From positions 28,532 through 92,531 of the forward strand of contig JAQSWS010000007.1 in assembly GCA_029266495.1 (NCBI GenBank): a stretch of DNA of 64,000 bases. The letters run 5' to 3'. The DNA is from Rariglobus sp. (GTDB lineage Bacteria; Verrucomicrobiota; Verrucomicrobiia; Opitutales; Opitutaceae). Positions within the stretch are counted from its first letter, which is position 1. Each line of letters starts with the position of its first letter. A program made the translations under genes and the position numbers. The notes beneath the pieces are model-generated. The model did no database searches and was not told the DNA's origin. It saw only the letters and a program-made list of their open reading frames with translations. Below, one piece after another: positions 3,765 to 61,658 of this stretch.

Positions 3765-3984
3765 ATCCTCTCACTACGCCCGTAAACTCCCCGCAGGCGC
3801 AAAATATTTTGCGTATCGCTCATTCCCGTAACGGAACGGCGGAGCCGTTTCGTCCGATTCCTCTCCGACTTCTGTGCCTTTTTGTGCTTTTTGTGGCAAA
3901 AAATTCCGATTCCGAACCTTTCATGTCTTTCGTGTTTTTCGTGGTTAAAAACTCCGATTCCCCGCATCCCTTTTCCCATTTCCC

Positions 3985-4680: not shown

Positions 4681-6688
4681 GCCCCTGCTTTTTCTGCCGG
4701 TCACCGCCTGCGCGCTCTTCGCCGGGGATCCGCCCGTTGCCCTGTCTCCCGTCGTCGTCTCCGCCACCCGCAGCGAACAACCCGCCCAAGCCCTGCCGGT
4801 CGCCGTCACCGTCTTCACCGTCGAGGACCTGCGCGCGTCGCCTTCGCTCGCGATCGACGACACGCTCCGCTCCGACCCGTCCTTCAGTCTCTTCCGTCGC
4901 ACCGGCAGCCTCACCGCCAATCCCACCGCCCAGGGCGTCTCCCTCCGCGGACTCGGCCCCAGTGGCGCCAGCCGTTCCCTCGTCCTTCTGGACGGGATCC
5001 CCCTCAACGACCCCTTCGGCGGCTGGGTCGCCTGGACCAAGCTCCCCAAGCTCTCCCTCTCCTCCGCCGAGATCGTGCGCGGCGGCGGTTCCGGCGCCTG
5101 GGGCAACGCCGCCCTCGGCGGCACGGTGCAACTCCTCACCGCACCGCCCGATGGCAACCACGCCGCCGCCGAGGCTTACATCGGCGACTTCGACACACGC
5201 GGCGGGGAAGTCGCCATCACCCGCTCCACCGCCGGCAACCGCACCAGCGTCACCGTGGACGCCGCCGCCTTCGCCACCGATGGCGTTTATCTGATCCGCA
5301 ATCCCGGCTCCATCGATCGCCCGGCCAGCCTCGATTACCAACGCGCCCAAGCATCCATCTGTAGTGCGATCACCGATACGCTCACGCTCACCGTCACCGG
5401 CCGTCTCTACGCCGAGGAACGCGGCAACGGCACTCCGCTCCAGCGCAACTCCTCCGATGAGGCCTTCTTCTCTGTCGTGCTCTCCGGTTACGACACCCAA
5501 GACTTCACCTGGGCCGCCGTCTTCTACGCCCAGGACCAGTCATTCGCGTCCTTCTTCTCCTCCGTTGATCCGACGCGCACCACCGAGACACCCGCCAATG
5601 ACCAATACGACGTTCCCGCCACCGCGCTGGGCGCCACCTTCACCGCCACGTGGACCTCCGGCTCCGGCGCCATCACCACGCTCGGCACCGACTTCCGCCG
5701 TGTCGAAGGCGAGACCCGCGAACGCTTCAACTTCGCCCTCGGACCCTTCGACCGCCGTGCCGGTGGCGAACAAACCTTCCTCGGGCTCTTCGCCCGCCAC
5801 GACCGCTCCGTCTTGACCGCCCTGCACGTCTCCGCCGGCGCCCGCATCGACACCTGGCAAAACACCGGCGGCTTCCGTCGAGAAACCGGTCCCGTTCCCC
5901 TCGACCAAACGTTCCCCGATCAGGAGGGCGTCGAGTTCAGCCCCCATCTTGGGCTCGTCTGGCAACCCGCACCCGACGTCCGCGCCCGCGCCTCCGCCTA
6001 TCAGGCATTCCGCGTCCCCACGCTCAACGAATACTACCGCCCCTTCCGTGTCGGTGCCGTCACCACCAACGCCAATCCCGACCTCGTCCCCGAAACCCTC
6101 ACCGGTTTCGAAACCGGCCTCGACCTCGGACGCCCCGGTGCGCCGCTCGGCGCTTCCCTCACCGCCTTTGTCAATGAACTCCAGGACGCCGTGGCAAACG
6201 TCACCATCGCCCCCGACACCCGTGAACGCCGAAACCTCGACCACGTCCGCGTGCAAGGCCTCGAGGCCTCTCTCCGCGCCCGCCCTCACCGCACGCTCAC
6301 GCTTGAAGCCGCCTATCTTTTCACCGACGCCCGCGTGACCGATCCCGGCGCCAATGCCCCCGCGTCCCTCGACGGCAACCGCCTCGCCCAAGTCCCCCGC
6401 CACACCCTCACCACGTCGGCGACATGGAACGCCCCGTTCGCGCTGCAACTCACCGCCCGCGCCCGCTGGTTCTCCGCGCAATATGAGGACGACGAAAACA
6501 CCCTCCGCCTCGCCCCTGCCGCCACCGTCGATCTCGGTGTCTCGCGTCGTTTCCGCAAACACTGGGAAGTCTTCGTCGCCGTCGAAAACCTCTTCGACGC
6601 CGAGGTCGAAACCGGCCGCACCACCGCCGGCATCGTCAGCATCGCCCCGCCCCGCTGGTCCCGCGCCGGCCTCCGCTACGATTGGTGA
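4670..6688 (+). CDS. TonB-dependent outer-membrane receptor
   Basis: Plug domain (LDGIPLNDPFGGWVAW, IVRGGGSGAWGNAALGGTVQLLT), C-terminal beta-barrel ending LRYDW; overlaps the upstream gene by 11 nt. Confidence 0.93.
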   Translation: MRFKPLLFLPVTACALFAGDPPVALSPVVVSATRSEQPAQALPVAVTVFTVEDLRASPSLAIDDTLRSDPSFSLFRRTGSLTANPTAQGVSLRGLGPSGASRSLVLLDGIPLNDPFGGWVAWTKLPKLSLSSAEIVRGGGSGAWGNAALGGTVQLLTAPPDGNHAAAEAYIGDFDTRGGEVAITRSTAGNRTSVTVDAAAFATDGVYLIRNPGSIDRPASLDYQRAQASICSAITDTLTLTVTGRLYAEERGNGTPLQRNSSDEAFFSVVLSGYDTQDFTWAAVFYAQDQSFASFFSSVDPTRTTETPANDQYDVPATALGATFTATWTSGSGAITTLGTDFRRVEGETRERFNFALGPFDRRAGGEQTFLGLFARHDRSVLTALHVSAGARIDTWQNTGGFRRETGPVPLDQTFPDQEGVEFSPHLGLVWQPAPDVRARASAYQAFRVPTLNEYYRPFRVGAVTTNANPDLVPETLTGFETGLDLGRPGAPLGASLTAFVNELQDAVANVTIAPDTRERRNLDHVRVQGLEASLRARPHRTLTLEAAYLFTDARVTDPGANAPASLDGNRLAQVPRHTLTTSATWNAPFALQLTARARWFSAQYEDDENTLRLAPAATVDLGVSRRFRKHWEVFVAVENLFDAEVETGRTTAGIVSIAPPRWSRAGLRYDW

Positions 6689-6734: not shown

Positions 6735-6777
6735 GCCCAACCTATTTGTCACTTAATAAGTGACAAATAGGTTGGGC
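6735..6777. repeat. 43-bp perfect palindrome, core TTTGTCACTTAATAAGTGACAAA
   Basis: 21-bp arms around one central base; same 23-bp core recurs at 9303-9325. Confidence 0.95.
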
Positions 6778-9292: not shown

Positions 9293-9335
9293 CCAATCCC
9301 AATTTGTCACTTAATAAGTGACAAATTGGGATTGG
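9293..9335. repeat. 43-bp perfect palindrome, second copy of the TTTGTCACTTAATAAGTGACAAA core with different, still complementary flanks
   Basis: ccaatcccaatttgtcactta-a-taagtgacaaattgggattgg. Confidence 0.95.
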
Positions 9336-9422
9336 GTCATTGGGTCATTGGTCATTGGTCATTGGTCATTGGTCATTGGTCATTGGTCATTGGTCATTGG
9401 TCATTCCGCGCCTGCGGCGCGG
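9336..9422 (+). repeat. Heptanucleotide array (GGTCATT)x10 followed directly by tri-loop hairpin CCGCGCC-TGC-GGCGCGG
   Basis: Ten GTCATT units, 8-nt then 7-nt spacing, 9336-9405; hairpin 9406-9422. Confidence 0.95.
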
Positions 9423-9469: not shown

Positions 9470-9778
9470 ATGTATGACTTCCCCCTCACCGGCGCGCAGA
9501 AGACGTTTCTCCGCGGCCTCGGCCAAACCCTCGATGCCTCCGTCAAAGTGGGCAAAGGCGGCCTCACGCCCGAGTTTTTCACCGAACTGCAAAAACATCT
9601 CAACGCGCGCGAGTTGATCAAAGTCCGCTTCGTCGCCGCCGACCGCGACGAACGCGCCGCCCTCGCCCCCCAGATCGCCGACAAAGGCCGTTGCATCTGG
9701 ATCAGCTCCGTCGGCGCCACCGCCCTCTTCTTCCGCCAAAACCCCGACCCTGCTCGCCGGGTGATCGAACTGACCTGA
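9470..9778 (+). CDS. yhbY: YhbY/CRM-domain RNA-binding protein
   Basis: LTGAQKTFLRGLGQTLDASVKVGKGGLTPEFFTELQKHLNARELIKVRF; start at 9470, not 9326 (upstream part is repeat-derived). Confidence 0.85.
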   Translation: MYDFPLTGAQKTFLRGLGQTLDASVKVGKGGLTPEFFTELQKHLNARELIKVRFVAADRDERAALAPQIADKGRCIWISSVGATALFFRQNPDPARRVIELT

Positions 9779-9965
9779 TTCAACTTCCGGAATTTATGGC
9801 CACAAAAAGTCACAAAAATTCCTCGCCGCCTTCGACACCCACCCGCGCGCCTATAGGCGCACGCAAGGCTCCATTCGCAGACCATATTTTCGCGTTTTTT
9901 GTGGCCAATTCCTCCGACGCCTCGCGGCCTTAGCGCCTTCGCGTCTTTGCGTTAAACTTCCGTCC

Positions 9966-43477: not shown

Positions 43478-43500
43478 CCCGCCCCATGCCCGCCCCATTC

Positions 43501-43544
43501 GTCATTCGTCATTGGTCATTCGTCATTGCGGGGGCGGCCCCCGC
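43501..43544 (+). repeat. Heptamer array (GTCATTS)x4 + abutting tri-loop hairpin GCGGGGG-CGG-CCCCCGC
   Basis: Units at 43501, 43508, 43515, 43522; hairpin 43528-43544. Confidence 0.93.
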
Positions 43545-43553
43545 CACCGCCTG

Positions 43554-45704
43554 ATGCAATTCCTCGCCCCCGCCGCCCTCGCCGGACTCGCCGCGCTCTC
43601 CCTGCCGGTGATCATCCACCTGCTCAACAAACTCCGCATCCGCGAAGTGCGTTGGGCCGCGATGCGCTTTCTCCTCGCCGCCGCCCAGAAGAACCAGCGA
43701 CGCGTCAAGATGCAGGATCTTCTCCTGCTCATCCTCCGCTGCCTCGTCCTCGCGCTGATCGTCTTCGCCTTCGCCCGTCCCACGTTCGAAAAAATCGCCA
43801 AATCCAGCCTCGTCGCCGGCGATCCGCTCACCGTCATGGTCCTCCTCGACCAGTCCGCCAGCATGGGCGTGAGCGACGGCGTCGAGACGCGCTTCGCCGC
43901 CGCCCGCACCGCCACGCTCAATTTTCTTGAGGAACTTCCCTCCGGTTCCGCCGCCGGTTTGCTGCTCGTCAACGACAGCTACGCCAGCCCCGTCTCCCGC
44001 CCGTCCCGCGACCTCTCGCTCGTCCGCCGCAGCGTCGAACTCGCCAGACTCACCGACCGCGGCACCGACTTCCAACCCGCGATCCGCGCCGCCGTCGAAG
44101 CCCTGCGCAATCTCCCCGGCCGCCGCGAGGTTCATCTCTTCACCGACAACCAGCTCACCGGCTGGCGCGCCCTTGAACCCGTCCGTGAATTCCTGAAGAC
44201 CGCACCCGACATCAAGGTCGTCATCACCACCCCCGCCGCCTCCCCGGCCTCCGCCGCGAACTCCGCCCGCAACCTCGCCGTCACCCACCTCAAGCTCGAC
44301 ACCGCCATCCCCGTCGCCGGCCAGCCCCTCCGCGTCCTCGTCGAAGTCACCAACACCGGCGAGATCCCCGCCGACGGCGTCCGCCTCGCCATCGCCGTCG
44401 ACGACGACGCCCCGTCCGCCGATGCCGTCATCAGCAACCTCGCCCCGGGAGGCACCCGCTACGTGCCCCTCCTCGTCCGCCTCCCCGGCACCGGCTTCCA
44501 CACCCTCACCGCCTCGCTCCCGCCCGACCGCCTCGCCTTCGACAACCGCCGCACCCTCGCCCTCGAAATCGCCCCCGCCCGCGACGTGCTCATCGTGGAA
44601 TCCCGCCGCGGACCCGCCCCCTGGCAGGGCACCGGCCACTTCCTCGCCACCGCCCTCGCGCCCGTCGACGAGGAATCCGCCTCGCGCCACTACCTCCACG
44701 TCACCCGCACCACCGCGGCCGACCTCGATCCGTCCAAGCTTTCCGGATACGCCGTCATCTTCCTCGCCGCCGCCGACGCCCTCCCCCCGCCGGTAATGAC
44801 CGCCCTTGCCTCCTTCGTGAACGACGGCGGCGGCCTCGTCGTCATGCCCGGCGACGCCACGCCCGCCGGCGTCTTCCTCGACGCACCCTGGCCCGACCTC
44901 CTCCCCGCCGCCATCAACCTCCCCGTCGAACCTTCGCAAGGCGCGATCGAGCCCGCCCCCTACAATCACCCGCTCCTCACGCTCTGGAACGACCCCGCCG
45001 CCGGCAACCTCGCCGCCCTTCGTTTCGCGAAAATCTTCTCCCTCGACCCCCTCAAACTCCCCGAAGTCTCCACCGCGCTCCGTCTCGCCGACACCTCCCC
45101 GGTCATCATGGAACGCACCGTCGGCAAGGGCCGGGTCGTCCTGTTCGCCGCCCCGCCCGTGCCCACCTGGACCAATCTTCCGCTGCACCCCGCCTTCGTC
45201 CCGCTCATGCACCGGCTCTACGCCGCGACTGCGCGCGCCTCCTCCCTCAAGCTCAACCTCGCCCCCGGCGACACCTTCCAGGCACCCGTCCCCATCGAGC
45301 AGCTCAACCGTGATGTTTACGTTCGCGGCCCCGCCGAGGATGCAAAACCCGTTGCCACCGGTCGCACCGAACTTGTCGGCACGCAGGCCATGCTCCGCGT
45401 CCGCACCGCCTCCTCCGCCGGCCGCCACACCGTCTACGTCGGCCAGAACGAACGCCCCGACTTCTACTTCGCCGTGCAACCCCCCGCCGACGAATCCGAC
45501 CTCAAGTCCGCCCCCGCCGACATCCTTACCTCCACCGGCATTCCGACCTCCAGCTCGCCGTCCTCCGCCGCTCCGTCCTCCGTCCCTCCGCCCTCGACCC
45601 CGCTCCTCACCGCGCAACAGCTCTGGATGATCGCCCTCGCCGCCGCCGCCTTCCTCTCCTGCACCGAGCTTCTGCTCGCGCTGCGTTCCAGCCGCTCCCG
45701 CTAA
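43554..45704 (+). CDS. BatA-like membrane protein with vWA domain
   Basis: MQFLAPAALAGLAALSLPVIIHLLNKLRIREVRWAAMRFL; vWA VLLDQSASMGVSDG. Confidence 0.88.
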   Translation: MQFLAPAALAGLAALSLPVIIHLLNKLRIREVRWAAMRFLLAAAQKNQRRVKMQDLLLLILRCLVLALIVFAFARPTFEKIAKSSLVAGDPLTVMVLLDQSASMGVSDGVETRFAAARTATLNFLEELPSGSAAGLLLVNDSYASPVSRPSRDLSLVRRSVELARLTDRGTDFQPAIRAAVEALRNLPGRREVHLFTDNQLTGWRALEPVREFLKTAPDIKVVITTPAASPASAANSARNLAVTHLKLDTAIPVAGQPLRVLVEVTNTGEIPADGVRLAIAVDDDAPSADAVISNLAPGGTRYVPLLVRLPGTGFHTLTASLPPDRLAFDNRRTLALEIAPARDVLIVESRRGPAPWQGTGHFLATALAPVDEESASRHYLHVTRTTAADLDPSKLSGYAVIFLAAADALPPPVMTALASFVNDGGGLVVMPGDATPAGVFLDAPWPDLLPAAINLPVEPSQGAIEPAPYNHPLLTLWNDPAAGNLAALRFAKIFSLDPLKLPEVSTALRLADTSPVIMERTVGKGRVVLFAAPPVPTWTNLPLHPAFVPLMHRLYAATARASSLKLNLAPGDTFQAPVPIEQLNRDVYVRGPAEDAKPVATGRTELVGTQAMLRVRTASSAGRHTVYVGQNERPDFYFAVQPPADESDLKSAPADILTSTGIPTSSSPSSAAPSSVPPPSTPLLTAQQLWMIALAAAAFLSCTELLLALRSSRSR

Positions 45705-49886: not shown

Positions 49887-51596
49887 ATGAAAACCACCCG
49901 TCGCCGCCTTGCATTGGTCATTGGTCATTCGTCATTGGTCATTTCATCGGCGGCGATCCTCGCCGCCGATGACGCCTCCCTCCGCCCCATCGCCTTTCAA
50001 AACGGCGTCAACCAGCAGTCGCTCGGCGCCGAGACCGCCGAACTCGCCCGCGCCATCGACGCCCTCATCGACGAACTCCAGCGCAACGGCTTCCCCGTCC
50101 AAAGCCTCGCGGGACTCTCCGAACTCGCCGCCCAGTTGAACGCCCTCGGCGGCACCGAGATGAGCGCGATCGCCAGCCGCCTCCGCAAGCTCGGCGAAAA
50201 CGCCCAGGCCGACCCGCGCGCCACCGCCACCGAAGCCTACCTCGCCCAGCAGGCGATCGAGACACGCCTCAAAAGCCTCGCCCGCCAGATCTCCATCCAG
50301 CGGTTGCGCGAAGAGGCCGCCCGCCGGCTCGAAACGCTCATCGCCCGCCAGCTTGCCACCCAGCGCGAGACCCGCGCCATCGCCGCCGCCAAAGCCGACG
50401 CCGAACGCCAGCGCATCCTCGAAAGCGACCAGACCGGCATCGGTGAAGACCTCTCCACCTTCTTCCAGACCGGCGAAAACCTCCTCGCCCGCCTCCGCGA
50501 AAACCCCGCGGCGCCCGCTCCCGCCGCCGGAGCCCCCGCAGCGCCCGCCGGCCCCACGTTTGCCGAACGCATCAACGGCGCCTACCTGACCACGCTCTCC
50601 ACCGAAGCCGTCGACCACCTGAAGGGCAAACGCTACCCGGACGCCTACGGCCGCCAGGAAGCCCTCCTGGCCGAACTCCGCAAAATCCTCCAAGGCATCC
50701 TCTCCAGCCTCCCCAAGGAACAGCGCCTCGCCAACGCCCTTCAACAGGTCTCCGCCCTCCGCCAGCAGGAGGAGGCCCGTGCGAAAACCGATACCGCCAC
50801 CCCCGAAAGCAAACAGGCCACCGCCGACCAGGCAAAAACCCTCGCCGACCAGGTCGCCGCCCTCAGCCCGGAAGCCGCCGCCGCCCTCAAGAAAGCCGCC
50901 GAGGAAGCCCTCAAGAAGGAGGAAACCACCGAAACGCCTCCCGAAGTCGCCAAAACCGACCCCAAGTCGGGCGACCCGTCAAAGGATCCCGGCAAATCGG
51001 AGTCCGACGACACCGCCAAAAAGGAGGATCCCAAGGGCGAGGATTCCAAGGCGGAGGACGCCGAAGCGATGGCGAAAGGTGAAGGTAAACCCGAAGCCAA
51101 GGACGAAAAGGGCCCCGAAAACAAAGACGGGACCCCGCCGCAACCCGGCCAGACGCCCGCCACCGAAGCCCTCGCCGCCGCCGAGGCCGCGCTTCAGAAG
51201 GCCCTCGCCCAGACCCAGCAGCAAAACAGCCAGGGCCAGCCCCAAAACCAGCAGGGTCAGCAGCAGGCGGGCACCCCGCCGCAGCCCGGACAGCAACAAC
51301 CCGGGCAGCAGCAGACTCCCCAGCAAGGCAAGAGTTCACCCACCTCCCAGATCGGCCAGATCGACGGAAAAGCCCCCGACCCGAACCAGAAGGACGGCAA
51401 CGTGCAAAGCGGCCTGGGCGACGCGCAGAACCAGATCGCCGGCCGCGGCCCCTCCAGCGATGATCCCGCCCAGGTCGTCGGCGCGCTCCGCCGCGAGGAA
51501 CGCGAAGCCTTCAACGCCCTGCAAGGCGAACGCTACCCCGCCGAATACTCCGCCTGGGTGCAGCAATACTGGCGCAACCTCGCCCGGGACCAATGA
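49887..51596 (+). CDS. Secreted coiled-coil / Gln-rich low-complexity protein
   Basis: Signal peptide MKTTRRRLALVIGHSSLVISSAAILAADD; long QxxQQ tract near C-terminus. Confidence 0.75.
   Translation: MKTTRRRLALVIGHSSLVISSAAILAADDASLRPIAFQNGVNQQSLGAETAELARAIDALIDELQRNGFPVQSLAGLSELAAQLNALGGTEMSAIASRLRKLGENAQADPRATATEAYLAQQAIETRLKSLARQISIQRLREEAARRLETLIARQLATQRETRAIAAAKADAERQRILESDQTGIGEDLSTFFQTGENLLARLRENPAAPAPAAGAPAAPAGPTFAERINGAYLTTLSTEAVDHLKGKRYPDAYGRQEALLAELRKILQGILSSLPKEQRLANALQQVSALRQQEEARAKTDTATPESKQATADQAKTLADQVAALSPEAAAALKKAAEEALKKEETTETPPEVAKTDPKSGDPSKDPGKSESDDTAKKEDPKGEDSKAEDAEAMAKGEGKPEAKDEKGPENKDGTPPQPGQTPATEALAAAEAALQKALAQTQQQNSQGQPQNQQGQQQAGTPPQPGQQQPGQQQTPQQGKSSPTSQIGQIDGKAPDPNQKDGNVQSGLGDAQNQIAGRGPSSDDPAQVVGALRREEREAFNALQGERYPAEYSAWVQQYWRNLARDQ
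49911..49972 (+). repeat. Heptamer array (4 full units + partial) + abutting perfect 13-bp tri-loop hairpin, within the signal-peptide coding region
   Basis: gcattggtcattggtcattcgtcattggtcatt / TCATCGGCGGCGA-TCC-TCGCCGCCGATGA. Confidence 0.95.
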
Positions 51597-52423
51597 ACCA
51601 CGTATCCGGAATCTGGCGACGCCTCCGCATCCGCGGCGCCATCATCGGCTGCGCCCTGGTCATGGGTCATTCGTCAGTGGTCATTTCGTCCGCGGCGGCC
51701 GCCGCCCCGGACGACGCCTTCGGCCGCAGCGAACGCAAGGGCGCCACCCTCATCGGCATTTTCTACGACCTCAAGCAGACCCAGCAGCGCGAACCCATCC
51801 CCGAATTCGCCCGCCGCTACTGCCCCTACCTCGACGAGTTTCTCGTGTCCGGCTTCGACGAGGCGCTGCTCAACCGCTTCTTCCGGGCCGCCACCCCCCT
51901 CTACACCACCCAGTTCGCCATCCCCAACATGAACGCCAACGGCGCCCCCAAGGCGTTCGGCGTCGAAGGCGTGGTCAAACCCAGCTACTGGGTCGTGCAC
52001 TACAAGGGACAGGTCGCCCCGCCGGTCGATGGCACCTACCGCTTCGTCGGCAATTTTGACGACCTCCTGATCGTCGCGATCAACCGCAAGGTCATCCTGG
52101 ACGGCAGCCGCCCCGACACCCGCTTTCCCCGTCTCAACTGGAAGGAACCCGCCGACAAAGGCCCCAAGGTCGCCGCCAACGAAATCGCGGAATACGGGGA
52201 CTGGATCGACCTGAAGGCCGGCCAGCCCGTCGACCTCGACATCCTGATCGGCGAGCGTCCCGGCGGCCAGTTTCACGGCGTGATTCTTTACGAAAAGAAA
52301 GGCGAGACCTACCCCCGCAACGAACGCGGCCAGGCGATCCTCCCGCTGTTCCAGATCGCCGAAAATCAAATGAACAACCCGCGCTTCCTCACCGACCGCC
52401 CCGTGTGGACGTGCGTCGAATAA
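51593..52423 (+). CDS. Secreted PA14-like domain protein
   Basis: Signal peptide ...CALVMGHSSVVISSAAAAAPDD; VVHYKGQVAPPVDGTYRFVGNFDDLLIVAINRKVILDGS. Confidence 0.72.
   Translation: MNHVSGIWRRLRIRGAIIGCALVMGHSSVVISSAAAAAPDDAFGRSERKGATLIGIFYDLKQTQQREPIPEFARRYCPYLDEFLVSGFDEALLNRFFRAATPLYTTQFAIPNMNANGAPKAFGVEGVVKPSYWVVHYKGQVAPPVDGTYRFVGNFDDLLIVAINRKVILDGSRPDTRFPRLNWKEPADKGPKVAANEIAEYGDWIDLKAGQPVDLDILIGERPGGQFHGVILYEKKGETYPRNERGQAILPLFQIAENQMNNPRFLTDRPVWTCVE
51659..51714 (+). repeat. Degenerate heptamer array + abutting 13-bp tri-loop hairpin (12/13 paired), within the signal-peptide coding region
   Basis: gtcatgggtcattcgtcagtggtcatt / TCGTCCGCGGCGG-CCG-CCGCCCCGGACGA. Confidence 0.92.
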
Positions 52424-54750: not shown

Positions 54751-55254
54751 CTAAGTCTTCCGCCGGCTAAGTTGTCGCTGCGCTTCGTTTCGTAGAAGGG
54801 GGATGGCGTTCGTCTCGGCCAGCTGCCGCAGCCGGCCTTCCGCTTTTATACCATCAAGATTCCCAAGCGCCCAAATGGCTTTTACCGCAAGCGCACGACT
54901 CTTGTCGAACGTGAGGTAAGGAGGTATCCATTGCGTCGCATGGAAGAGTGCATCCACGGTCTTCAAACTCCTTAAGCTGCTAAGTGCACCGACGACATCT
55001 TCGTGACGCTCGTGCCAATCCTCCGCTGCTAAACGGGAGAGAGATGGAATATGTTCATCCTTAAAACCGAATGTGAAACCGACCAGCAACGCCATCTCAA
55101 CGTCGACACCGTTTCGCGAGGCGATGGCCTCATCAAGGAGTTCGCCTGCAAGCGCAACCCCATCATTGGAGTTTCTGAAGAGATTTAGGAACTCTTCTGG
55201 CGAGATGTCTTCATGCGCGAGCCGTAAAATTAGCTCCTGTTCATAAGTTGTCAT
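54751..55254 (-). CDS. HEAT-like helical protein, candidate immunity protein for the adjacent RHS toxin
   Basis: 167 aa, alpha-helical repeat pattern; start overlaps the RHS stop (ATGA, 55251-55254). Confidence 0.6.
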   Translation of the reverse strand: MTTYEQELILRLAHEDISPEEFLNLFRNSNDGVALAGELLDEAIASRNGVDVEMALLVGFTFGFKDEHIPSLSRLAAEDWHERHEDVVGALSSLRSLKTVDALFHATQWIPPYLTFDKSRALAVKAIWALGNLDGIKAEGRLRQLAETNAIPLLRNEAQRQLSRRKT

Positions 55255-58200
55255 CGCGGCATAGCACTGAAATTTATGATATTATCATTGAATGTGTTGA
55301 GTCCAGAACCTTGACCGAGGCCGATGTTAACTTGGCCATCCTCCGCCTTAAAATAGGCATTGGTCGTTGCCCAGTTCTCGACTGACTGAACGAGCGGCAA
55401 AACACCGAGCGTCTGCCCCACAAGCCTTGAACTATCCCGAACACCAATGGTTTGTAGCGCAGCGGTCGTTCCTCCATTCACATTGAACTCCACCAGAACT
55501 CCCGTATAGCCTGCGGCAAAAGACCTCGTCGGGGAGATAAAGGTTTCATGGGTGGCAGGGAGCCTGCCCGTGGACACAAGTGCACCGTAATGCTCATCAC
55601 TCATCGTTCGATAATACTTTTCGGTCGGCGTCTCTCCCGGTTGGCGAATATTAATCCATACTGGTTCGGCCGGTCTATCACGCAAATATGGATCAACACT
55701 ATGGGTAGGTGATCCCCATTGTTTTTGTGGTTCCGCTACTAGAGGTATTTCCGCACGCGGGGTAGAAGGCCTAAGAGCGGTTTTCCCTTCCGCTAGATCA
55801 ACCATAGCAGGGGCAAGATTGACGGGCAACGATTCAACCAGTGCTTGAGTAACTTTCGTTTCTTCGTATGCACCCATTTTCTGAAATGGCGACCCATACT
55901 CTCGAACATTCGCTGCCGCCATCCGATGAATTTCCTCTGGTGTGAAAGCTCGAGGATTCGAGGGTGATAAGAATCCAGCCAACATTGCGTTAATGAAAGC
56001 ATCCGCAACCTTCGCGGTGGTCTGCCCTGCAGCTTTTCCAAAACGTCCATCCGGATCCATGAAGTTGATCGGATCATTAAACGCATAATCGTATAATGAC
56101 ATGCTCGCGGCGTGACCCGCTGGGTCCGGAGAAAGGAACCGCCCGCTGATCGGCTCGTAGTAGCGAGCACCCAGATAATACAACCCGGTCGCGTCGATTC
56201 GGTGGCCACGCCAAACCGTGGCGCTGGTCAGCTGCAGTGTCATGCCTGCAGTCTCTGCCAAACCGAGTGTCTTGCTCACCTGCCCCGGCAAAGGGCCATA
56301 GCCGCTCACTTGCGTGCTCGTCCACGTCAGCATCGCAGCGCCAGAAGCACCTGCAATGGAAGCAACGCCGTGACCCCACGTGTCGCTGATCACCGCGTTG
56401 ATCTGGTGGTCGGATTCGCGAATGGCTGCTTCCAATCCACCGATGCCCTGCAGGCTGCCATAACCCCCGTTAAGGTCGGGGCCATATATCTTCCAAAAGG
56501 TCTCTCCGGGATTAGAGGCCGAGCCGATGTTCACCGCCAGTTCCAGAAACTCGACCTGTGGATCATAGAGGGATTTCTCGGTTACCCGCGTTCCCGCGAC
56601 TACCGCACCGATCTCTGTGAGGGAGTCGCTGCGGGTTTCAATGCGGCGCCCGCCTGCATCATAGATGGCAGTCCAGAGTCGGCCTGGCTGCCCGTCGCCA
56701 AAGTCTTCGATCGAGAGCAATCGGCCCAACACATCCCAAGTCAGGCTCTGGTTGCGCCCGCTTGTCCACGCGCGTTGGCTTGCATAGCCAGATGCGTCGT
56801 AATCGGTGTAAATGCGATCAGCCGCGTCCGCGGTAACCTGAAACCGGCTTACCGCGGCGGCGCTGACCATCGAGCCGTCCCGCTTGACCGCACGCGCTTG
56901 CAGTTCGTAGGAGCCATTCGGCAGGTCCAGTGCGACTTCCCAGCGGCCATCCGCACTGTCCGGGTTAAACTGCACGCCTTGAACCGGAGCGGTCTTGCCG
57001 GTGGCAAGGTTTCGAAGATCGAGCCGCACCGTGCCCGCACCGACCGCAACCCCGTGCGCGGTGGTCGATCCCGGGACCGTCGTGTTTTCCTGAACAATGC
57101 GAGCCAGCGGATCGAGTCCACCCGAGGCCACTTGCCAACGGTTGCTCGTCGCGCCTGAAGCAATCGCCTCGGTGCGCACGCCCAACCCATCCTGATCGTA
57201 ACGATACGCGATGCTCGCGGTCTGCCCCACGGTCGGAGCATACGTTTCCTCCACCAAGTGACCGCGCACATTATAGGTGTAGGTGCTCGCCAAGTCCCAA
57301 GAACCGGAACGCACCGCATTATACGTGCTCAAGCGTCCGTCTTCCCGCCAACTGAGCGCTTCTTGAAAGAAAGGGGCCGTTAGGCTGGGTATCGCCGAGG
57401 TGGTGGTCTCCGTCGTCAGAATCCGCCCCTGCCGGTCGCGGGACTTAATCGTTTGCGTGCGCCACGGATTGACGCGCGAAGTCAACTGGCCCGAGCGATC
57501 ATAATTGAAGACGAAGCGCTGATTGGAGCCCGTCATGGCTTCCGTGACGGCGGTGAGGAGTCCATCCGCGCGCTGCTCGTAAGCGAAACGTTGAGCTGGC
57601 GTAGCCCCCATATCTCCATCCAAACGGTGTCGACGGCCGACACTGTTCCAATGCTGGTCCACCGTGCTCCGGATCACATTATCAACAAAAACCTGCTCGC
57701 GGGTGACCTGACCATAGCCGTCGAATTGACGGCTGACCTTCGTGGTGGCCAGTGAGGTGTCGGCATACGATTGAACATGCTCCATGAGGTGACCTCGGTG
57801 GTTATAACCATAGCCTAGGGTCAGGCCAAACAACGCCGGGTCACCCGATGCCATCGTAACGGACATGGGGCGACGGAAAGCGTCATAAGCCACCGTCGTG
57901 GAGGTGACCCCGCGCAGCAGATCGACGTGTTCTCGAGGCAAGCCGGTAAAATCGCCCGAATGATAATAAGTGCGACTGAACTGCCGGGACGGCACTTGAT
58001 CGGCGCCCCGAAGCTCCTCAGTGATCGGTCGGCCGCTGGAATCAAAAGTGGCGCTCCAAGTCAGGCCGGCGGGCATGGCCCTCTTGATGAGATTGCCCAA
58101 GCTATCGTAGGCAAACGTGGTCTCGGCTCCGTCAGGCAGGCGGGTGCTCTTTACGCGATTGAACCCATCGAAGGTCATCAACGTGGATTGGCGACGTGCA

Positions 58201-61200
58201 TCGATTGATTCCACCAAGTTCCCAGCCAGGTCGTATACGCTTCTCGTGACGTCGAAGGCGCTGTCGGAGCGGTAGAGATGAGTGAGAACGGGTCGCCCCA
58301 AGGTGTCCGTAAAGGTTCGGACCTTTGAATGGGCTTCGGGTGCGCTCGGATCACCCCGGGTGACGGTCACGCTCTGATGGTCGGCGCTGTAGGCGTAGGT
58401 AACGACGCTGATCGGAGTAGCTGCCGCGACAGAGGCCTTCACCTCGGCACGAACCGAACGTCCGAGCCCGTCACGCTGGGTGCGCGTAACCTCCCCGAGC
58501 GCGTTGGTCACGGTATCAGTGAGCGCGACAAGGTCATACGCATACGTGGAGACCTGCTGCTGCGACTGCGGAGTGGCGCCGGGACCGGTGACCACCAAGG
58601 GACGTCCCATGCCATCGTAGCTGGTTGTCGCCGTGTAGCCGTCCACGTCGGTTGCAGAGACAAGATTACCTCGCCGGTCGTAGGTGCGCGACTCCGTGGT
58701 GATCAGCGCGCCAGTGCTACCCGCCGGGCTGCCGGTCGCCGGAGGGCCATAAAACCTTCGTGTAACCGTCCGCGCGACATCGTCGTAGGAGGTGATCCAC
58801 TTGGATCGGTTCGGCAAAATCTCCTCTTTAATGCGACCATCGAGGGTATAGCGCCACTCCAGGACGGTTCCATCGGGGTTTTCCTGCCGTGACGGCTGCC
58901 CCATGACCGTATAATAATAGGTGGTCACCCCGCCGGCCCCATTTATAAAACGTGAAACCTTGCCACCCGGCTCGTAGAAAAACTCTTCTATCTTGAGCAG
59001 CAAATTTGTCTTCGCCTCACGATACTCCTTGCGAGTGAGCTGCCCAATCGCATCGAAGGTTTGCGCGATGTAGTTCCCGTTAGGATCGATCTGTTTGATC
59101 ACATTGTCGAAGGCATCGTATTCGTATTCGATCACGGCCTTTCCGGCTACTTCATTCTCGTCGCCCACGGCCTCAACTCCGGAGCCATCGGCTTTGGCCT
59201 GTGAACGCCAGAACACGTCGGCAATTCGGCGACCATGTGCGTCATAATGATGGAATGTATAATCCTCCGGTCCGGTGCGCGGACCGTCTTCCCAAGAAAC
59301 CTCTCCATTTGAATTGTAGTAGGTTGTCGTCGACGAAAGCAGCGCACCGGCGACGTCATACACGGCCCCACGAATTGGGCGTCCCATCGCGTCATACTCG
59401 TAGCTCTTCTTACGCCCCCCGGCATCGACCTCCTCCACAAGCTCACCTCGGTAGTTGTAGTGATAGCGAGACACTGCATCCGCGACGTTCGAGCTCATCG
59501 CAGGCGTGCCAATCAGCCCTGCTTGACTGAACTGAGTCTGCTTGGTTATGAAGCCACGTGCATCATATTCAAGCCGGGCGTGGGCGGCATCCGGAGAACC
59601 AGCGGCGTAGACTTTGGCTTGAAGCAGGCCCTTGGCCTGCTGAGCACCACTTCCCGCGTTTGTATAACTTAGGAGAGCTTGAGAGATTTCGGTGGATCCT
59701 ATCAGCTGGGAAACGCGTGCAGGCCGGTAAGAATAGGTGGAATCGTAGACGATTGCCTGAACAGAGGGAACCAATCCCGAAACAGTTTCCACCTCGCGCT
59801 CAACTGTCAGAGGCAGATTGGTCGTGTTAGTATAGGTAGAGCGCACCGTCTGAGTTTCCGCCACGCTGCCGTCACCCGTGATGTCGCCGGTTTGTTTTTG
59901 CAGGATCAGGTTACCGCGGGCATCATACCAATAATGTGTTACCAAACCGCGCTTATCTACCGTGCGTTTAAGACTGCGATCATAGCCACCCGGGGCACCA
60001 TCGGCGGGGATGGTCGTGAGCACCGGAAGCACGAAGCCGCTATAGTCAGCGGGATCTCGATTTGGATCTGGATACCCCGTGCGTCCGTCATACCACTCCT
60101 GCTCAGTCACCTGCCCAAGGGGATCAGTGATCGACGTGATTAATCCGTCAGTGTATTCGTAAAACAAGCAGTTGGTGTCGCGCGAAGGATTGTTTGATGG
60201 AGTGTTAAACGCATCATAAATACGCGTCCAGCCGGTCTTGGGTGCGGTGTCTGACTCGGGATGCGAATATACATAGGTGGCGTTTCGGATTAACTCCAAA
60301 CCTCTCCCGATCGTCGCCCGCTGTTCAACAACCCGATTCCGGGTATCGTAATCATTCTCAAGCGTGCGCCCTTCCGGCTTCAGCACGCGTGTTATCAGGT
60401 GCATCGAGTAGGTGGGCACCGGAACAGTCGATTTGGGGTTCTTTAGGTCCACAGTGCTATGCTTGTAGCTGTAGCGATAAACCGAGCCGTCCGCACGTGT
60501 TACCGAAATCAAATCACCGAAATCATCATATTGATAGACTAAGCGGCGGCCGTCGTTCGCCGAAGCTGCGATAATCTGGCCGGGCGAATTGTATTCGAAC
60601 AAAATAAAACTGCCATTACTGCTAACAATCTTCGTCAGCTGACCATAATCCCAGCGATTAACGTCCACCCCTAATTTAAACGTCAGGTAATTCCCTTGCG
60701 CGTCGGTCCACTTATATAAGTATGGACGTTTACGGGGGATCTTTTTTCCGGCAGGACCAACTGGAAACTCCCTCTCGTAATACTCACGGATCGAACCATC
60801 GGAACCATAGACAGTGTAGCGGTTCCTCTGGGGGGGGTTTACAGACTCCCACGGATCACGAGTCGTGGTATTATTAACCATCTCAACTCGCTGGGACCGC
60901 AGGTTTGCCGTAGAGCCCACACCGGCCATTGTCGAATTGGAAAAGTGTTTATTGATATCACTTCCATCCAACAAAGGCCGTGACGCACGCCACACGTTGA
61001 CGGACGGCTCTTTTACATAGCCCACGACCGTGCCGTCCATCTCCGCGGCAGAGATGATACTATTTTTACCTGACTGCACCACAAGATGAGGCACCGTGTT
61101 TAACTTCCATCCATACCCAAATACACCAAACCCGTCATTCATGCTACTATATGTCCGCCGGACTTGGATTGGAAGCGGCCCCGCCAAGCCAAGATCGACC

Positions 61201-61658
61201 TCGTCGCACACAAACGCTCCGCTGACAGAATCGACCGGATCCGCGATCATCTGGCCGAATCCAGCCGATTCCTGCCCGACAACCTGATCAAGTGGAGCGA
61301 GGTCCAAATACATTCGCACAATATCGGATTCAGTTTTTGAAATCCCGAGAACATCCGCGAATAGGGACGCATCGCGAAATATGCCAAAATCGTTATGGCT
61401 ATAAGACACTCCGGAGACAGGGTCGAATCCCGCACTTGGAGAAAAAGTTCCGAGCCCAAGTGAATATTTGGAGGAGTCACTAAACTCGGTGATCGAGCCA
61501 TCAGTCGCAAGCCAGGTGCTTGAAGCATTCGGGTCGAACGGGACTCCAGCACCGCCCTTTAAATCCAAGGCACGCGGCTCCGGTCCATCCATGGCAACCA
61601 GTGCAGCCGCGAGGACCAAGGCAATTAACGATGAAAAGATTCCACGCCTAAAATTCAT
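55251..61658 (-). CDS. RHS/YD-repeat protein with N-terminal Sec signal, DUF6531-like region and C-terminal polymorphic toxin domain
   Basis: DPVDSVSGAFVCDEVDLGLAGPLPIQVRRTYSS, many YD repeats, core boundary GLYYLGARYYEPISGRFLSPDPAG...YDYAFNDPINFMDPDGR, then unrelated C-terminus. Confidence 0.95.
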   Translation of the reverse strand: MNFRRGIFSSLIALVLAAALVAMDGPEPRALDLKGGAGVPFDPNASSTWLATDGSITEFSDSSKYSLGLGTFSPSAGFDPVSGVSYSHNDFGIFRDASLFADVLGISKTESDIVRMYLDLAPLDQVVGQESAGFGQMIADPVDSVSGAFVCDEVDLGLAGPLPIQVRRTYSSMNDGFGVFGYGWKLNTVPHLVVQSGKNSIISAAEMDGTVVGYVKEPSVNVWRASRPLLDGSDINKHFSNSTMAGVGSTANLRSQRVEMVNNTTTRDPWESVNPPQRNRYTVYGSDGSIREYYEREFPVGPAGKKIPRKRPYLYKWTDAQGNYLTFKLGVDVNRWDYGQLTKIVSSNGSFILFEYNSPGQIIAASANDGRRLVYQYDDFGDLISVTRADGSVYRYSYKHSTVDLKNPKSTVPVPTYSMHLITRVLKPEGRTLENDYDTRNRVVEQRATIGRGLELIRNATYVYSHPESDTAPKTGWTRIYDAFNTPSNNPSRDTNCLFYEYTDGLITSITDPLGQVTEQEWYDGRTGYPDPNRDPADYSGFVLPVLTTIPADGAPGGYDRSLKRTVDKRGLVTHYWYDARGNLILQKQTGDITGDGSVAETQTVRSTYTNTTNLPLTVEREVETVSGLVPSVQAIVYDSTYSYRPARVSQLIGSTEISQALLSYTNAGSGAQQAKGLLQAKVYAAGSPDAAHARLEYDARGFITKQTQFSQAGLIGTPAMSSNVADAVSRYHYNYRGELVEEVDAGGRKKSYEYDAMGRPIRGAVYDVAGALLSSTTTYYNSNGEVSWEDGPRTGPEDYTFHHYDAHGRRIADVFWRSQAKADGSGVEAVGDENEVAGKAVIEYEYDAFDNVIKQIDPNGNYIAQTFDAIGQLTRKEYREAKTNLLLKIEEFFYEPGGKVSRFINGAGGVTTYYYTVMGQPSRQENPDGTVLEWRYTLDGRIKEEILPNRSKWITSYDDVARTVTRRFYGPPATGSPAGSTGALITTESRTYDRRGNLVSATDVDGYTATTSYDGMGRPLVVTGPGATPQSQQQVSTYAYDLVALTDTVTNALGEVTRTQRDGLGRSVRAEVKASVAAATPISVVTYAYSADHQSVTVTRGDPSAPEAHSKVRTFTDTLGRPVLTHLYRSDSAFDVTRSVYDLAGNLVESIDARRQSTLMTFDGFNRVKSTRLPDGAETTFAYDSLGNLIKRAMPAGLTWSATFDSSGRPITEELRGADQVPSRQFSRTYYHSGDFTGLPREHVDLLRGVTSTTVAYDAFRRPMSVTMASGDPALFGLTLGYGYNHRGHLMEHVQSYADTSLATTKVSRQFDGYGQVTREQVFVDNVIRSTVDQHWNSVGRRHRLDGDMGATPAQRFAYEQRADGLLTAVTEAMTGSNQRFVFNYDRSGQLTSRVNPWRTQTIKSRDRQGRILTTETTTSAIPSLTAPFFQEALSWREDGRLSTYNAVRSGSWDLASTYTYNVRGHLVEETYAPTVGQTASIAYRYDQDGLGVRTEAIASGATSNRWQVASGGLDPLARIVQENTTVPGSTTAHGVAVGAGTVRLDLRNLATGKTAPVQGVQFNPDSADGRWEVALDLPNGSYELQARAVKRDGSMVSAAAVSRFQVTADAADRIYTDYDASGYASQRAWTSGRNQSLTWDVLGRLLSIEDFGDGQPGRLWTAIYDAGGRRIETRSDSLTEIGAVVAGTRVTEKSLYDPQVEFLELAVNIGSASNPGETFWKIYGPDLNGGYGSLQGIGGLEAAIRESDHQINAVISDTWGHGVASIAGASGAAMLTWTSTQVSGYGPLPGQVSKTLGLAETAGMTLQLTSATVWRGHRIDATGLYYLGARYYEPISGRFLSPDPAGHAASMSLYDYAFNDPINFMDPDGRFGKAAGQTTAKVADAFINAMLAGFLSPSNPRAFTPEEIHRMAAANVREYGSPFQKMGAYEETKVTQALVESLPVNLAPAMVDLAEGKTALRPSTPRAEIPLVAEPQKQWGSPTHSVDPYLRDRPAEPVWINIRQPGETPTEKYYRTMSDEHYGALVSTGRLPATHETFISPTRSFAAGYTGVLVEFNVNGGTTAALQTIGVRDSSRLVGQTLGVLPLVQSVENWATTNAYFKAEDGQVNIGLGQGSGLNTFNDNIINFSAMPR

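What the first reader, a model, noticed from the sequence alone, without database searches (positions are those of the whole stretch)
49887..51714. Composite repeat (heptamer array + abutting tri-loop hairpin) forms the signal peptides of two adjacent genes
Seen: the 49887 and 51593 genes both start with a (GTCATTS)n array joined with no gap to a 13-bp hairpin with a 3-nt loop (13/13 and 12/13 paired). In frame these encode LVIGHSSLVIS + SAAILAADD and LVMGHSSVVIS + SAAAAAPDD, i.e. the h-region and Ala-rich cleavage region of Sec signal peptides. A 7-nt unit read in triplets gives the same cyclic peptide (GHWSLVI)n in all three frames with no stop. The complement (AATGACC)n hits TGA in every frame. 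Such a repeat landing sense-oriented at a gene 5' end is therefore always open and hydrophobic: a portable signal-peptide generator (inference).
Basis: partly seen in the sequence, partly recalled or inferred. Interest (0 to 1): 0.87.

Follow-up and report, generated by a model that had tools for sequence, protein, structure and literature searches.

The report
Heptamer-hairpin repeats rewrite signal peptides
A bacterium of the family Opitutaceae carries dozens of copies of a 7-letter DNA repeat, often capped by a custom-made hairpin, at the edges of its genes, and at several genes the repeat has overwritten the middle of an older export signal without apparently breaking it.

Summary
Both genes carry a (GTCATTS)n array joined without a gap to a 13-bp, 3-nt-loop hairpin inside the signal peptide. 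The genome holds about 58 such arrays; 27 of 58 abut a hairpin, against 0.7% of random sites.

Orthologues without the array have ordinary signal peptides, so the array re-encoded the h-region of an existing signal peptide and did not create one. It is not signal-peptide specific: it also sits in 5' leaders, prepilin leaders, DnaE, CoaX and at gene 3' ends. The rule is polarity: 52/58 arrays are sense, and the 6 reversed ones are all at gene 3' ends. In a complete genome of another genus, 23/24 arrays lie on one replication strand although genes there favour the other.

Hairpin stems differ between loci and species but stay paired (6/6 differing stem positions compensated), and strong hairpins are nearly absent from array-free orthologues. 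Congeners fill the same slots with other heptamers, for example (CCGTCCT)n signal peptides.

Best reading: a polarised member of the known class of bacterial heptamer repeats, with a fold-back (template-switch) hairpin at its gene-facing end, surviving in signal peptides because they tolerate it.

The parts
49887..51596 (+). secreted/periplasmic protein of unknown family; signal peptide MKTTRRRLALVIGHSSLVISSAAILA-ADD partly encoded by the repeat
   Evidence: ORF; no Pfam hit; start and mature part conserved in array-free orthologues
49912..49943 (+). (GTCATTS)n array, 4.6 copies, encodes LVIGHSSLVI (h-region)
49944..49972 (+). hairpin, 13/13 paired, 3-nt loop; encodes SSAAILAADD region
   Evidence: orthologue L134 has a different, equally perfect 13-bp stem
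51593..52423 (+). PA14-domain protein, signal peptide partly encoded by the repeat; start overlaps previous stop (ATGA)
51659..51685 (+). degenerate (GTCATTS)n array, 4 units, 2 perfect
51686..51714 (+). hairpin, 12/13 paired, 3-nt loop
43486..43554 (+). leader-peptide uORF MPAPFVIRHWSFVIAGAAPATA whose TGA overlaps the ATG of the BatA-like gene at 43554
   Evidence: the same arrangement in L134, short empty gap in L135, L136, L154, L137
43501..43527 (+). (GTCATTS)4 array in the uORF
43528..43550 (+). hairpin, 10 bp with 1 mismatch, 3-nt loop
48213..48225 (+). two-unit array in the N-terminal part of the DUF4175-like gene; no hairpin
9344..9405 (+). nine perfect units, 64 nt upstream of the start at 9470
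9406..9422 (+). hairpin CCGCGCC/TGC/GGCGCGG abutting the array

Best explanation
The feature is a polarised heptamer repeat that accumulates at gene edges. It belongs to the known broad class of dispersed heptameric repeats of bacteria, but its gene-facing end is often joined directly to a hairpin made for that locus. Shown: the strand leading away from the gene carries (AATGACS)n, so arrays are sense at 5' ends and reversed at 3' ends; hairpins go with arrays; stems vary by locus and species yet stay paired; array-free orthologues have normal signal peptides. Inferred: the array end and hairpin arise together by fold-back template switching during replication, where polymerase copies the strand back on itself with a minimal loop, which would make and repair perfect stems. 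The array lands with strand bias relative to the replication fork. At a 5' edge the sense strand has no stop and encodes moderately hydrophobic GHWSLVI, so it is tolerated in 5' leaders, uORFs, prepilin leaders and above all in signal-peptide h-regions, where only hydrophobicity matters. In 49887 and 51593 it overwrote the h-region of an existing Sec signal peptide, leaving start, n-region and mature protein in place. At 3' edges it supplies stops in all frames.
For: 58 arrays: 52 sense, 6 reversed, all six at gene 3' ends; 17/17 inside genes are sense. Hairpins: 27/58 against 0.66%. Score >=8 in 9/24 array-bearing against 1/61 array-free orthologous sites (p=3e-5), and that one site keeps a decayed array. 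Orthologous stems differ but pair: site C TCATCGGCGGCGA/TCGCCGCCGATGA vs TCGTCGGGGGCGG/CCGCCCCCGACGA; L071; L075; L064; 6/6 differing stem positions compensated; L100 has a matched 3-nt insertion in both arms. Array-free orthologues have ordinary signal peptides. Replicated in G016, another genus, with 23/24 arrays on the C-rich replication strand against 108:160 genes (p=5e-8). Template switching is reported to create and maintain RNA hairpins with compensatory changes (PMC8794818, abstract).
Against: About half the arrays have no hairpin, and G010 has an array without the hairpin that G000 has at L096. In some 5' leaders (L061, L074, L096) neither arm resembles the empty orthologue, so 'inverted copy of the gene edge' is clear only at coding and 3' sites; a simple alignment test of the two arms was uninformative. 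At L081 (8677) a weak hairpin is already present in the empty G001 site, which fits a target-site model. Which strand is leading was not established (the 16S search found nothing). SignalP was not available.
Confidence: 0.58

Rival explanations
1. Portable signal-peptide generator: the repeat spreads and is kept because a sense insertion at a 5' end makes a new, always open, hydrophobic signal peptide.
For: Signal peptides at 49887, 51593, L079, L085, L320, L134 and L157 contain the array; (CCGTCCT)n signal peptides at L358, L365 and the lipoprotein L427. Sense frame open, antisense closed.
Against: Array-free orthologues have signal peptides already. Most arrays are in untranslated leaders, and some in CoaX, DnaE and other enzymes or at 3' ends in reverse.
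Confidence: 0.12
2. Cis-regulatory RNA element: array and hairpin act in the mRNA leader as a translation-initiation or coupling signal, as proposed for TAACTGA repeats in Beggiatoaceae.
For: Many arrays end 5-35 nt upstream of a start codon in sense; leader peptide with TGATG coupling at 43486-43554, shared with L134; compensatory stem changes.
Against: The same composite occurs deep inside genes and after stop codons; close relatives lack it at the same genes; hairpins decay at some sites (L069).
Confidence: 0.14
3. REP/MITE-like mobile element in which the hairpin is either the mobile palindrome or the insertion target, moved by an HUH (Y1) transposase.
For: Hairpin abuts at offset 0; strand bias fits single-stranded targets; one empty site (L081 8677 in G001) has a partial hairpin.
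Against: Stem sequence is not conserved between loci; array-free sites mostly lack hairpins; Y1 transposase counts do not follow array counts (G003 and G012 none, G002 six).
Confidence: 0.1
4. Chance low-complexity sequence in a GC-rich genome.
For: None after controls; GC-rich Ala codons do make weak hairpins (25% of 50-nt windows score >=5).
Against: Shuffles, the reversed control pattern and random positions.
Confidence: 0.01

Closest known systems
TAACTGA heptamer direct repeats (Beggiatoaceae, Cyanobacteria, Bacteroidetes; MacGregor 2015, PMC4679880)
   Same: 7-nt tandem units, dispersed, patchy across taxa; most are immediately upstream of start codons in one orientation; one strand is closed in all frames, the other open; inserts tolerated mainly at protein ends.
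   Different: Unit sequence differs; the orientation facing a start is the one with stops, opposite to here; no locus-specific abutting hairpin and no signal-peptide use found in the parts of the paper read here.
GGGAATC / GGGGAYT heptamer repeats of Xanthomonas and Nostoc (Rehm 2015, PMC4692102)
   Same: Heptamer arrays close to genes, on the non-coding strand upstream and the coding strand downstream: the same outward polarity as here.
   Different: G-quadruplex-forming units; no leading/lagging preference was reported, whereas in G016 23/24 arrays lie on one replication strand; mostly intergenic (89-93% in Xanthomonas).
Hairpins made and maintained by template switching (PMC8794818; quasipalindrome mutations in E. 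coli, PMC7202029; abstracts read)
   Same: Perfect, short-loop hairpins with concerted changes in both arms.
   Different: Here they sit exactly at the end of a heptamer array and recur at dozens of loci.
REP elements with RAYT transposases
   Same: Short palindromes dispersed near genes.
   Different: No conserved stem sequence or GTAG/CGTC tag; array counts do not follow Y1 transposase counts.
Rickettsia palindromic elements (from own knowledge)
   Same: In-frame repeat insertions inside protein-coding genes.
   Different: No heptamer array; different sequence and structure.

Membership tests
Dispersed bacterial heptamer tandem repeats (TAACTGA / GGGAATC class) | 7-nt tandem unit in many dispersed copies, above chance | tested here: met
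Dispersed bacterial heptamer tandem repeats (TAACTGA / GGGAATC class) | location at gene edges with fixed polarity | tested here: met
   52/58 sense, 6 reversed at 3' ends; G016
Dispersed bacterial heptamer tandem repeats (TAACTGA / GGGAATC class) | G-quadruplex-forming G runs (GGGAATC subclass only) | tested here: not met
   unit GTCATTS has no run of three G (read from the sequence)
REP/RAYT elements | conserved palindrome with a GTAG or CGTC tag | tested here: not met
   stems differ at every locus
REP/RAYT elements | copy number linked to a Y1 (TnpA-REP) transposase | tested here: not met
Sec signal peptide | basic n-region, hydrophobic h-region, small residues before the cleavage site, at a true N-terminus | tested here: met
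   by hydropathy and orthologue starts only
Sec signal peptide | SignalP score or demonstrated export | not testable with these tools
   no SignalP; no experiment
Template-switch hairpin | perfect stem, short loop, concerted change in both arms | tested here: met
Template-switch hairpin | one arm ancestral, the other a new inverted copy | tested here: inconclusive
   clear by eye at L069, L098, L100 and site C; not at L061, L074, L096; alignment test uninformative

The most novel reading that the evidence does not exclude
A process exists that writes heptamers: the period is always 7 while the unit changes between loci and species (GTCATTS, CCGTCCT, CTCTCAA, CTACYCG, TTCAGGT). Different units fill the same gene-edge slots in sister species. 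For GTCATTS the outward strand starts from a fold-back hairpin on one replication strand. This would be a telomerase-like or templated end-extension activity acting on single-stranded gaps, not slippage of a single mobile repeat.
Probability: 0.1. Interest if true: 0.9.

Novelty: new variant of a known kind. Interest (0 to 1): 0.62.

Why it matters
Heptamer repeats have been noted in several phyla with no mechanism. Here sister species with and without each array, plus hairpins that mark the junction, make the birth and polarity of such repeats testable. It also shows an observable route by which signal peptides are re-encoded by repeat DNA between close relatives, which may help explain why their sequences diverge so fast.

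Tried and rejected
A REP/RAYT origin was tested with PF01797 across the genus: no link to array number. Pairwise alignment identity of the two hairpin arms against empty sites did not discriminate, so I used hairpin presence instead. A first strand analysis in G016 from array loci alone was confounded, because all neighbouring genes were co-oriented; 20 evenly spaced 20-kb stretches resolved it. 16S was sought to fix the leading strand but gave no hit. Text searches for the repeat peptides and DNA found no paper. Hairpins next to other heptamer families are rare: 2/27 against 33/67 for GTCATT.

Full report
WHAT IS THERE. The window is contig C37 of a 4.89-Mb draft genome whose relatives are Opitutaceae. 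At 49912-49943 lies a 4.6-copy (GTCATTS) array, joined with no gap to a perfect 13-bp stem with a 3-nt loop at 49944-49972. At 51659-51685 lies a degenerate four-unit array joined to a 12/13 stem at 51686-51714. The window has three more sense arrays, at 9344, 43501 and 48213, two of them with abutting hairpins.

MORE THAN CHANCE. Shuffled windows give 2.5 matches to the two-unit pattern; the window has 23. The genome has 148 (overlapping) matches of the three-unit pattern with up to one mismatch and none for the reversed control pattern, and 46 perfect array ends. I parsed 58 arrays in fetched regions. A stem of score 7 or more starts within 6 nt of the array end in 27/58, against 0.66% of random positions. 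In nearly all of these the stem starts at the very next base.

POLARITY. Inside genes, 17/17 arrays are sense. Overall 52 are sense and 6 reversed (p=3e-10). All six reversed ones sit at the 3' end of a gene, five of them in inverted pairs with a sense array before the next gene (L069, L075, L081, L097, L098). Seen from the gene, the strand leading outward always carries AATGACS. At 3' ends the hairpin includes the last codons, as in L097 (TCGTGTGAGCGCG, with the TGA) and L098 (TCGGTCGGC-TAA-GCCGACCGA), or the array itself supplies the stop (L069, L075, L081). Rehm et al. describe the same outward polarity for GGGAATC heptamers (PMC4692102), and MacGregor describes heptamers just upstream of starts (PMC4679880). 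The open-frame argument explains arrays inside genes but not this rule.

ORTHOLOGUES. The operon was found in relatives. At gene 49887, L134 (apparently G010) and L136 (apparently G004) share the array. L154 (G001), L137 and L141 have none but have ordinary Sec signal peptides at the same place, such as MKTSHTRRLTLAATCVLLATINARA-ADE, with the same start and the same mature protein. So the start lies upstream, the repeat is translated, and it re-encoded an older h-region at almost unchanged length. The same holds for 51593. At 43486 the array makes a 22-codon leader peptide whose stop overlaps the next start; the relatives without the array have a short gap there.

NOT ONLY SIGNAL PEPTIDES. Further signal peptides with the array are a GH5 cellulase (L079), L085, and L320 in genus g5. 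Other arrays sit in prepilin leaders (L065, L091), before CoaX (L070), inside what reads as DnaE (L083), and most often in 5' leaders 5-35 nt from the start (protein names for L070, L083 and the pilins come from reading the sequence). At the L079 and L085 genes G001 uses a different heptamer, (CCGTCCT)n, for the signal peptide. In an even 400-kb sample of G001, one of four heptamer arrays encodes a lipoprotein signal peptide MRPSAARPPSSVLCLLSAVLCLLSITGC. At L073 G001 has (TTCAGGT)n in frame at the same position. Signal peptides are thus recurrent hosts for heptamer arrays in general, most simply because they tolerate them (inference).

THE HAIRPIN. At orthologous sites, stems of score 8 or more occur in 9/24 array-bearing but 1/61 array-free sequences (p=3e-5); the single exception, L069 in G004, keeps a decayed array and a perfect 15-bp stem. 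Relatives share ancestry, so this is association, not independent gains. Where stems differ between species they still pair: site C has three compensated changes, and L071, L075 and L064 one each, 6/6 in all. L100 has a matched 3-nt insertion in both arms. The gene-side arm is clearly gene sequence at L069, L098, L100 and site C, but not in several 5' leaders, and my alignment test could not decide. Template switching is reported to create and maintain such hairpins (PMC8794818, abstract); that it did so here is inference.

REPLICATION STRAND. In G016, a complete genome of another genus, 25 array ends were listed. Counting each place once, 23 of 24 lie on the C-rich strand of their replichore, while genes in 20 evenly spaced 20-kb stretches are 108 co-oriented and 160 opposite (p=5e-8). 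The gene calls come from a simple codon-position caller. In the home genome 52/58 arrays are on the locally C-rich strand. Which strand is leading was not established.

DISTRIBUTION. Exact three-unit arrays occur in 22 of 289 Verrucomicrobiota genomes over several families, in 11 of 13 genomes of the genus with very different numbers (two-unit pattern), and in some viral contigs. In the regions at hand the only non-codon tandem period of note is 7, with several unrelated units. No paper with these repeat sequences or peptides was found.

CONCLUSION. The most likely account is a polarised heptamer repeat with a fold-back hairpin at its gene-facing end, replication-strand biased, tolerated in and overwriting existing signal peptides. 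The generator reading is possible but less likely.

Noticed in passing
window 6735-6776 and 9293-9335; L082 7869; L097 405 and 5510; L418 4391; L436 18881: A second palindrome family with constant core TTTGTCACTTA-A-TAAGTGACAAA (TTTGTAACTTA in G001) and locus-specific, perfectly paired outer arms of up to 10 more bp: again a fixed core with custom stems. The 9293 copy directly abuts the 5' end of a heptamer array.
   Followed up: partly
L134 near 6340-6400 (orthologue of window 48106): REP-like sequence GTGGGAGCGAGCTTGCTCGCGATG inserted in frame in the N-terminal region where the window has a two-unit heptamer array.
   Followed up: no
window 3895-3984 and 9900-9965: Other repeated leader sequences just upstream of starts, such as TTTCATGTCTTTCGTGTTTTTCGTGGTTAAAA and TTAGCGCCTTCGCGTCTTTGCGTTAAAC.
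   Followed up: no
L086 2850-3030 (C30 of the home genome): Four different heptamer families side by side in one stretch: (CTACYCG)n, (CTCTCAA)n, (CCGTCCT)n, (GTCATTG)n, all pyrimidine-rich on the same strand.
   Followed up: partly
L398-L417 (G016): Very strong GC skew (about -0.3 to +0.3) with the genes only weakly biased to the G-rich strand.
   Followed up: partly
window 55251-61658: A 2135-aa ORF on the minus strand with RHS/YD-like repeats and a variable C-terminal part (read).
   Followed up: no
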